NCBI RefSeq assembly: GCF_000092225.1
Contig: NC_014158.1
Location: 744,001-808,000 of the forward strand
Direction: 5' to 3'
From: Tsukamurella paurometabola DSM 20162
Lineage (GTDB): Bacteria; Actinomycetota; Actinomycetes; Mycobacteriales; Mycobacteriaceae
DNA length: 64,000 bases
In this document: piece after piece, positions 21,706 through 24,700 of the stretch
Position numbering within the stretch: the stretch's first letter is position 1
How the letters are laid out: every line of letters starts with the position of its first letter
Program-made: the position numbers and the translations under genes
Notes under the pieces: generated by a model
Seen by the model: only the letters and a program-made list of their open reading frames with translations
Database searches by the model: none
Told to the model about the DNA's origin: nothing

Positions 21706-24700
21706 TTGGCAGTCTCCGTCTCCAGCCAGACTCAGAACGATCAGAACGCCGTGGTCCCCGGGGCCCCGAAGCGCGTCTCGTTCGCGAAGCTCTCCGAGCC
21801 GCTCCCGGTACCCGGTCTACTCGATGTGCAGACCGACTCCTTCGAGTGGCTCGTGGGCTCCCCGGAATGGCGTGAGAAGGCCGCGTCGCGTGGCGAGGCC
21901 AACCCGACCGGCGGCCTGGAGGACATCCTCGCGGAGCTTTCGCCGATCGAGGACTTCTCCGGTTCCATGTCGCTCTCCTTCTCCGACCCGCGCTTCGATG
22001 AGGTCAAGGCCTCCATCGAGGAGTGCAAGGACAAGGACATGACGTACGCGGCACCGCTGTTCGTCACCGCCGAGTTCATCAACAACAACACCGGCGAGAT
22101 CAAGTCGCAGACCGTCTTCATGGGTGATTTCCCGATGATGACGGACAAGGGCACCTTCATCATCAACGGCACCGAGCGCGTGGTCGTCTCGCAGCTGGTC
22201 CGTTCGCCCGGTGTGTACTTCGACGAGACCATCGACAAGTCCACCGAGAAGCCGCTGCACAGCGTCAAGGTGATCCCGGCCCGCGGCGCGTGGCTCGAGT
22301 TCGACGTCGACAAGCGCGACACCGTGGGCGTGCGCATCGACCGCAAGCGTCGTCAGCCCGTCACCGTGCTGCTCAAGGCGCTCGGCTGGACCAGCGAGCA
22401 GATCCTCGAGCGCTTCGGCTTCTCCGAGATCATGCGTTCCACGCTCGAGAAGGACGCCACCGCCGGCACCGACGAGGCCCTCCTCGACATCTACCGCAAG
22501 CTCCGTCCGGGCGAGCCGCCCACGAAGGAGTCGGCGCAGACCCTGCTGGAGAACCTGTTCTTCAAGGAGAAGCGCTACGACCTGGCCCGCGTCGGCCGGT
22601 ACAAGCTGAACAAGAAGCTGGGCCTGCCCGCGAACGCGGACGGCACCCAGTCCTACGTGCTCAACGAGGACGACATCGTCGCCATCGTCGAGTACCTGGT
22701 GCGCCTGCACGACGCCCCGTCGGAGCAGCTGACCTACATGACGGTGCCGGGTGGCGTCGAGGTGCCGGTCGAGGTCGACGACATCGACCACTTCGGCAAC
22801 CGTCGCATCCGCACCGTGGGCGAGCTGATCCAGAACCAGCTCCGGGTGGGCCTGTCCCGCATGGAGCGCGTGGTCCGCGAGCGCATGACCACGCAGGACG
22901 TCGAGGCGATCACCCCGCAGACCCTGATCAACATCCGCCCGGTCTCGGCGGCGATCAAGGAGTTCTTCGGTACCTCGCAGCTCTCGCAGTTCATGGATCA
23001 GAACAACCCGCTGTCGGGTCTGACCCACAAGCGTCGCCTCAACGCGCTCGGCCCCGGTGGTCTCTCGCGTGAGCGCGCGGGCCTCGAGGTCCGTGACGTC
23101 CACCCGTCGCACTACGGCCGCATGTGCCCGATCGAGACCCCTGAGGGCCCGAACATCGGCCTGATCGGCTCGCTGTCGGTGTACGCGCGGGTCAACCCGT
23201 TCGGATTCATCGAGACGCCGTACCGCAAGGTGACCGACGGTGTCGCGACGGACGAGATCGTCTACATGACCGCCGATGAGGAGGATCGCTTCTACATCGC
23301 GCAGGCCAACGCCGCGACCGACGACAAGGGCCGTCTCACCGACGACCGCGTGCTGGTCCGTAAGCGCGGCTCCGAGGTGGAGTTCGTGTCCACCGCGCAG
23401 GTCGAGTACATGGACATCTCGCCGCGCCAGATGGTCTCGGTCGCCACCGCGATGATTCCGTTCCTCGAGCACGACGACGCCAACCGTGCCCTCATGGGTG
23501 CGAACATGCAGCGTCAGGCCGTGCCGCTGGTCCGTTCCGAATCGCCGCTGGTCGGCACCGGTATGGAGCTGCGCGCCGCGGTCGACGCGGGCGACGTCAT
23601 CATCACCGAGAAGGCGGGCGCCGTCGAGGAGGTGTCGGCCGACTTCATCACCGTGATGGCGGACGACGGCACCCGCAAGACGCACCGGCTGCGGAAGTTC
23701 GCGCGCTCGAACCAGGGCACCTGCGCGAACCAGCGTCCGATCGTCTCCGCGGGTCAGCGGGTCGAGATCGGCCAGGTTCTGGCCGACGGCCCCTGCACCG
23801 ACAACGGCGAGATGGCTCTCGGTAAGAACCTGCTCGTGGCGATCATGCCGTGGGAGGGTCACAACTACGAGGACGCGATCATCCTGTCGCAGCGCCTGGT
23901 GGAGGAGGACGTGCTCACGTCCATCCACATCGAGGAGCACGAGATCGATGCCCGCGACACCAAGTTGGGCGCCGAGGAGATCACCCGGGACATCCCGAAC
24001 GTCTCCGACGAGGTCCTGGCGGACCTGGACGAGCGCGGCATCATCCGCATCGGTGCGGAGGTCCGCGACGGCGACATCCTGGTCGGCAAGGTCACCCCGA
24101 AGGGCGAGACCGAGCTGACCCCCGAGGAGCGCCTGCTCCGCGCGATCTTCGGTGAGAAGGCGCGCGAGGTGCGCGACACCTCGCTGAAGGTGCCCCACGG
24201 CGAGACCGGCAAGGTCATCGGCGTCCGCGTGTTCTCGCGCGAGGACGACGACGAGCTGGCCCCGGGCGTCAACGAGCTGGTCCGCGTGTACGTGGCCCAG
24301 AAGCGCAAGGTGCAGGACGGCGACAAGCTCGCCGGCCGCCACGGCAACAAGGGCGTCATCGGCAAGATCCTGCCCGCCGAGGACATGCCCTTCCTGCCCG
24401 ACGGCACCCCGGTCGACATCATCCTCAACACGCACGGCGTGCCGCGGCGTATGAACATCGGCCAGATCCTGGAGACGCACCTCGGGTGGGTCGCCAAGAC
24501 CGGCTGGGATGTGCGCGACGAGAAGGGGAACATCCCCGAGTGGGCATCGCAGCTGCCGGAGCAGATGTACGCCCAGCCGAGCGACACCAACACCGCCACC
24601 CCGGTGTTCGACGGTGCCCGCGACGAGGAGCTGGCCGGCCTGCTCGGCTCGACGCTGCCCAACCGTGACGGCGACGTCATGGTCGGCGCCGACGGCAAGG

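What the first reader, a model, noticed from the sequence alone, without database searches (positions are those of the whole stretch)
23041..23043. RpoB carries Asn at the main rifampicin-resistance position (Ser450 of M. tuberculosis, Ser531 of E. coli)
The codon AAC encodes Asn446 in THKRRLNALGPGG, whereas M. tuberculosis has Ser there. All other classic hotspot residues look wild-type. Natural rifampicin-resistant polymerases, for example in rifamycin producers and Nocardia RpoB2, are reported with Asn at this site, so this housekeeping polymerase may give intrinsic reduced rifampicin sensitivity. It could be a natural trait of the genus or a selected mutation.
Basis: partly seen in the sequence, partly recalled or inferred. 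Interest (0 to 1): 0.75.

Follow-up and report, generated by a model that had tools for sequence, protein, structure and literature searches.

The report
Natural asparagine at RNA-polymerase rifampicin site
The only RNA polymerase beta-subunit gene found in this Tsukamurella strain naturally has asparagine instead of serine at the spot most often mutated in rifampicin-resistant tuberculosis; the same swap recurs across actinobacteria, so it is an inherited variant whose effect on the drug still has to be measured.

Summary
In detail: codon 23041-23043 is AAC (Asn446), at the position of Ser450 in M. tuberculosis RpoB, in an otherwise standard hotspot. Genome length and replicon number match the Tsukamurella paurometabola type strain exactly; one rpoB was found.

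Asn is neither genus-wide nor a recent single-step mutation. Of 16 Tsukamurella species genomes, 2 sisters have it; 14 have Ser, all TCG, three bases away. Flanking DNA is Tsukamurella-like, so import is unlikely. Across 203 actinobacterial loci the site is Ser in 185 and Asn (always AAC) in 18; a 138-row tree needs at least 13 changes. The 17 other Asn genomes each show one rpoB.

Reduced rifampicin sensitivity is plausible but unmeasured. The rifampicin-inactivating gene arr is found in 15 of 16 congeners, this strain included, and published Tsukamurella isolates already have rifampin MICs of 1-4 ug/ml, so a raised MIC alone would not implicate Asn. Natural S450N is published for M. branderi. 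The Nocardia RpoB2 parallel fails in the copy examined (Asn at 526, Ser at 531). A natural, convergent hotspot polymorphism: ordinary in kind, mildly interesting.

The parts
23041..23043 (+). AAC codon, Asn446 of RpoB (Ser450 of M. tuberculosis, Ser531 in E. coli numbering)
22969..23049 (+). rifampicin-resistance-determining region (E. coli 507-533), standard except for Asn446
21706..25218 (+). rpoB, the only RNA polymerase beta-subunit gene found in the genome (TTG start inferred, 1170 aa)
   Evidence: (NCBIfam TIGR02013 and NF001616 over cut-off)
25249..29205 (+). rpoC; residues V280 and K603 are the only ones shared by the two Asn species and absent from the 13 congeners compared

Best explanation
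The Asn codon is an old, naturally fixed substitution that most likely arose in place once, on the branch leading to T. paurometabola and its sister species, in the single housekeeping rpoB. It is one of many separate Ser/Asn changes at this position in actinobacteria. Shown: the sequence, the distribution, the sister relation of the two Asn species, and the recurrence. Inferred: Asn is the one replacement that RNA polymerase tolerates here at low cost; by changing the hydrogen-bonding edge of the rifamycin pocket it probably lowers rifamycin affinity modestly, adding to drug inactivation by Arr. The effect size, and whether environmental ansamycins selected it, are not shown.
For: Codon confirmed. 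Asn in 2 of 16 genus genomes, the pair being sisters with local support 100 inside a Ser-bearing genus. The pair's rpoB genes are 95.95% identical over 3435 bases with 15 amino-acid differences, so the trait is likely older than their split. Three base changes from TCG. Flanking DNA closest to congeners: 97.3% over 150 nt on each side, against 91.7% for the best locus outside the genus. 203 loci: Ser 185, Asn 18, nothing else; 16 Asn rows among 138 need at least 13 changes. The 17 other Asn genomes each have one rpoB place, G051's lying in four pieces. Natural S450N is reported for M. branderi as a change at the rifamycin site that may confer resistance (PMC13246000, section 8 read whole). An Arr open frame in this genome keeps the His, Tyr and Asp contexts.
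Against: No MIC of this strain or of its sister was found (listings; the genome paper has no word beginning with rifamp). Asn is polar and could keep rifamycin contacts, so the change may be neutral for the drug. [quoted passage not shown] tuberculosis codon is recalled). Rifampin-containing regimens are described as effective in reported Tsukamurella cases (PMC13394614 and PMC9239891, passages), at genus level. The label is slightly clustered on the tree (8 of 500 shuffles as low) and some of the 13 changes may be losses.
Confidence: 0.7

Rival explanations
1. Neutral polymorphism: the origin is as above, but Asn has no meaningful effect on rifamycin binding; any raised MIC in these bacteria comes from Arr, from the mycolic-acid envelope or from a HelD/HelR-type ATPase.
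For: Arr in 15 of 16 congeners; 15 published isolates of four other Tsukamurella species, most of which I expect to carry Ser, have rifampin MICs of 1-4 ug/ml, 12 of 15 non-susceptible (PMC10715089, passages); a HelD/HelR-family ATPase is present but below NCBIfam cut-offs in the truncated frame scanned; drug modification rather than target change is called dominant in mycobacteria (PMC13246000).
Against: In the 203 loci the position is invariant except for Asn, and S450L at this position is a main acquired resistance change in M. tuberculosis (abstract of PMC12844990 in the listing), so a side-chain change there is likely to touch binding.
Confidence: 0.4
2. Import of the hotspot by recombination from another actinobacterium with AAC.
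For: AAC occurs in many genera, and a TCG-to-AAC change by point mutation needs several steps.
Against: Flanks are nearest to Tsukamurella congeners over 150 nt each side. Over only 45 nt each side the contrast is weak (94.4% against 93.3%), so a very short tract cannot be excluded.
Confidence: 0.08
3. Recent laboratory or clinical selection of a resistant mutant in this strain.
For: The position is a classic selected site (abstract of PMC12844990 in the listing).
Against: Needs three base changes from TCG; shared by a second species; strain first isolated in 1941 (PMC3156402, passages), before rifamycins were known (recalled).
Confidence: 0.02
4. Sequencing or assembly error.
For: None.
Against: The separate genome G012 agrees; coverage 8.25x Sanger plus 37.9x 454.
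Confidence: 0.005

Closest known systems
Natural RpoB S450N of Mycobacterium branderi (PMC13246000)
   Same: Same position, same residue, native RpoB of a species; function suggested there, not proven.
   Different: Different genus. There it is the only hotspot difference among the selected species compared; here it is shared by two sister species and placed in a 203-locus survey.
Acquired S450L/S531L-type rifampicin-resistance mutations of RpoB
   Same: Same position in the rifamycin pocket.
   Different: Acquired, mostly single-base changes to other residues (recalled); here Asn, three bases away from the Ser codon of congeners, fixed in a lineage.
Second RpoB copies of Nocardia (RpoB2) and Nonomuraea (rpoB(R))
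   Same: Natural variant rifampicin-site residues in actinobacterial RpoB.
   Different: Those are extra copies; PMC5431353 (passages) names H526N and S531Y. The N. anaemiae second copy read here has Asn at 526 and Ser at 531. Here a single housekeeping gene was found.
RpoB of Amycolatopsis kentuckyensis
   Same: Asn at the same position in the only RpoB found.
   Different: It also differs from the window's hotspot at 516, 518, 521 and 522; Tsukamurella has Asn alone.

Membership tests
Housekeeping bacterial RpoB | Full-length beta subunit over curated cut-off | tested here: met
   NF001616 1722.7 bits (cut-off 896), TIGR02013 1721.6 (801.15)
Housekeeping bacterial RpoB | rpoC directly downstream; only copy found in the genome | tested here: met
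   rpoC at 25249-29205; one match in the own genome
RpoB2 / rpoB(R) resistant paralogue | Second rpoB beside a sensitive one | tested here: not met
   one rpoB
RpoB2 / rpoB(R) resistant paralogue | His526Asn | tested here: not met
   His at 526
Natural Asn450/531 RpoB variant (as in M. branderi) | Asn at the aligned position, otherwise standard hotspot, in native RpoB | tested here: met
   M. branderi from PMC13246000
Rifampicin-resistant RNA polymerase | Raised rifampicin inhibitory concentration of the enzyme | not testable with these tools
   no biochemical or MIC data for this strain found (listings)
Selected rifampicin-resistance mutation | Recent change absent from the nearest relatives | tested here: not met
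   G012, the nearest relative found, shares AAC

The most novel reading that the evidence does not exclude
Asn at this position is a recurrent, low-cost natural rifamycin-tolerance allele of environmental actinobacteria, with at least 13 changes of state on the tree and always encoded as AAC, and missing from clinical isolates mainly because a TCG serine codon cannot reach Asn in one step. It would be an environmental target-site route that runs parallel to drug-modifying enzymes such as Arr.
Probability: 0.25. Interest if true: 0.6.

Novelty: new member of a known kind. Interest (0 to 1): 0.3.

Why it matters
It shows that the best-known rifampicin position is naturally variable in an opportunistic pathogen genus and that in this sample the variation takes a single form, Ser or Asn. 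If Asn lowers drug binding, rifampicin would be a poor choice for this species, and susceptibility rules taken from mycobacteria would need care. If Asn is neutral, a non-Ser residue here should not be read as resistance by sequence-based prediction. Either outcome can be settled with existing strains.

Tried and rejected
(2) Import by recombination: no support over 150 nt flanks. (3) Companion changes: 18 RpoB positions (residue 446 among them) set the Asn pair apart from all 14 other congeners and two rpoC positions from the 13 congeners whose rpoC was readable (G007's contig ends inside it); no known compensatory site was tested, so this is uninformative. (4) Co-occurrence of Asn and Arr outside the genus: Arr in 0 of 10 named Asn genomes and in 5 of 20 Ser-bearing ones (one of the five, G157, only marginally), P = 0.14: no association shown. 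The 20 were picked by hand from the 70 Ser loci of the named 80. (5) Rifampicin monooxygenase: 0 of 16 genus genomes over the cut-off; best G008 at 703.5 of 800 bits. (6) A published MIC for T. paurometabola: none seen in the listings (16 of 16 papers listed; 20 of 28; 9 of 9); of these papers I opened four for passages (PMC10715089, PMC13394614, PMC9239891, PMC13371299). (7) Ishikawa 2006 on Nocardia rpoB2: not held. (8) In one search the comparisons of G000 with G009 and with G004 were out of register and are discarded; only G000 with G012 is used.

Rows dropped: of 121 genomes, 12 had no match. Of the 109 with a match, 93 were newly read (29 loci of that call plus 64 stretches), G000 and 11 were already held, and G062, G071, G107 and G125 had no place covering the codon. 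Of 203 loci, 138 entered the tree, because only these hold near-full RpoB.

Full report
What is there. The codon at 23041-23043 is AAC and lies in frame in rpoB. With the TTG at 21706 as start (my choice) the residue is Asn446. It aligns with Ser447 of chain 5tw1_C and Ser450 of chain 6edt_C (positions counted by me from the printed alignment, organisms recalled); E. coli numbering (531) is used in PMC5431353. The rest of the hotspot equals that of the Mycobacterium and Gordonia loci L002-L007.

Which organism. The genome has 4,479,724 bases in 2 contigs. PMC3156402 (passages) gives 4,479,724 bp, a chromosome plus one plasmid, for Tsukamurella paurometabola no. 33T (DSM 20162), isolated from bedbug by Steinhaus in 1941. 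The identification rests on this equality and on the closeness of Gordonia and Mycobacterium among named genomes. One rpoB was found.

Distribution in the genus. The 16 genus genomes held were searched. Two, this one and G012, have Asn AAC; 14 have Ser, all TCG. The collection holds one genome per species, so G012 is another species; the two rpoB genes are 95.95% identical over 3435 bases with 15 amino-acid differences. On a 138-row RpoB tree with the residue masked the two are sisters (local support 100) among Ser-bearing congeners, and the longest-branched congeners G007 and G008 also have Ser. Asn is therefore most likely derived and older than the split of the two species.

How it arose. 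Every base of TCG differs from AAC. Identity over 150 nt on each side is highest with congeners (97.3%) and at most 91.7% with loci outside the genus. With 45 nt on each side the best values are 94.4% and 93.3%, which cannot exclude a very short conversion tract. AGC serine, one step from AAC, is used at this position in 17 of 203 loci and is a plausible intermediate, though in none of the 16 genus genomes.

Wider survey. Hotspots were read from 203 loci: 16 of the genus, 80 named loci (the best-scoring 80 of at least 591 relatives), 14 further relatives and 93 of the order sample. Position 531 is Ser in 185 and Asn in 18, no other residue; Asn is AAC each time. By set: genus 2 of 16, named 10 of 80, relatives 0 of 14, order 6 of 93. 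The named Asn bearers are Pseudonocardia acaciae, four Streptomyces, Amycolatopsis kentuckyensis, Catenulispora pinisilvae, Janibacter corallicola, Georgenia satyanarayanai and Promicromonospora sukumoe. The tree needs at least 13 changes for 16 Asn rows; gains and losses are not told apart, and 8 of 500 shuffles are as low, so the label is slightly clustered. The 17 other Asn genomes each show a single rpoB place, G051's lying in four pieces; many are drafts. So Asn is a recurrent variant of the main enzyme.

Nocardia anaemiae has two copies. Its second copy L008, with no rpoC following, has Asn at 526 and Ser at 531; the main copy L247 is standard. PMC5431353 (passages) names H526N and S531Y for the Nonomuraea copy and says they were also found in Nocardia farcinica rpoB2. 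Asn at 531 in RpoB2 is thus not supported by the one copy examined or by that text. In Amycolatopsis kentuckyensis and G136 Asn comes with further hotspot changes. PMC6804068 (passages) says three RpoB residues suffice for resistance of the producer A. mediterranei; the passages do not name them, and I examined no known producer.

Effect on rifampicin. None was measured. Arr (PF12120) is over the cut-off in 15 of 16 genus genomes, all but G009. The copy of this genome (G000:C1:2327245-2327541, outside the window) is an open frame with His, Tyr and Asp in the contexts FHGT, HIYFT and FEDDPN; that these match the essential residues His19, Tyr49 and Asp84 of Arr-ms (PMC13246000, passages) is my reading. 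No rifampicin monooxygenase passed the cut-off in 16 genomes. PMC10715089 (passages) reports rifampin MICs of 1-4 ug/ml in 15 isolates of four other Tsukamurella species, 12 non-susceptible, and calls rifampin not a good choice, though its discussion also speaks of probable efficacy. Which of those species carry Ser was not read from named genomes; since only one genus genome besides this one has Asn, most should. The baseline is therefore raised without Asn, and an MIC alone cannot test the residue. Against a strong effect at genus level, rifampin-containing treatment is described as effective in reported cases (PMC13394614, PMC9239891, passages). A case report (PMC13371299, passages) describes a rifampicin-resistant culture with many T. 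paurometabola reads, but M. tuberculosis with Ser450Leu was present too, so it says nothing about Asn.

Print record. PMC13246000 (section 8 read whole; other passages) reports natural S450N in M. branderi as possibly conferring resistance, says it is not found in clinical isolates, and finds drug modification dominant in mycobacteria; the MIC of M. branderi is in a figure I could not see. A search for S450N with rpoB gave only that paper; S531N had no occurrence in the 20 papers listed (of 1,000) and the 20 listed (of 175).

Conclusion. A natural, lineage-level Ser-to-Asn change in the rifampicin site, convergent across actinobacteria. A modest loss of rifamycin affinity is the more likely effect in my judgement, and a neutral change is a serious rival. 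Ordinary in kind; the pattern of Ser or Asn and nothing else is the most interesting part.

Noticed in passing
L260:1663-7872 (G048:C1, order Mycobacteriales, unnamed): A 2069-aa open frame resembling a fused, divergent RNA polymerase beta-beta' chain (Pfam Rpb2_3, Rpb2_6 and Rpb1_2 over cut-off, Rpb2_7 below it; a GDFDGD motif near residue 1423), beside a normal rpoB in the same genome; matches to phage RNA polymerase families of PHROGs.
   Followed up: partly
L261:2221-3453 (G007:C625, contig end): Partial second rpoB 3' part, 74% identical to the query, in a Tsukamurella draft of 890 contigs; contamination or a second copy.
   Followed up: partly
window 21817-28704, minus strand: 2295-aa open frame antisense to rpoB and rpoC, probably a by-product of high-GC codon use.
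   Followed up: no
L244:847-3123 (G000:C1 near 2521758): HelD/HelR-family RNA polymerase recycling ATPase, below all four NCBIfam cut-offs in the truncated frame scanned.
   Followed up: partly
L127 (G008:C19:30791-32215): Best rifampicin-monooxygenase-like match in the genus, 703.5 of 800 bits, in one divergent Tsukamurella.
   Followed up: no
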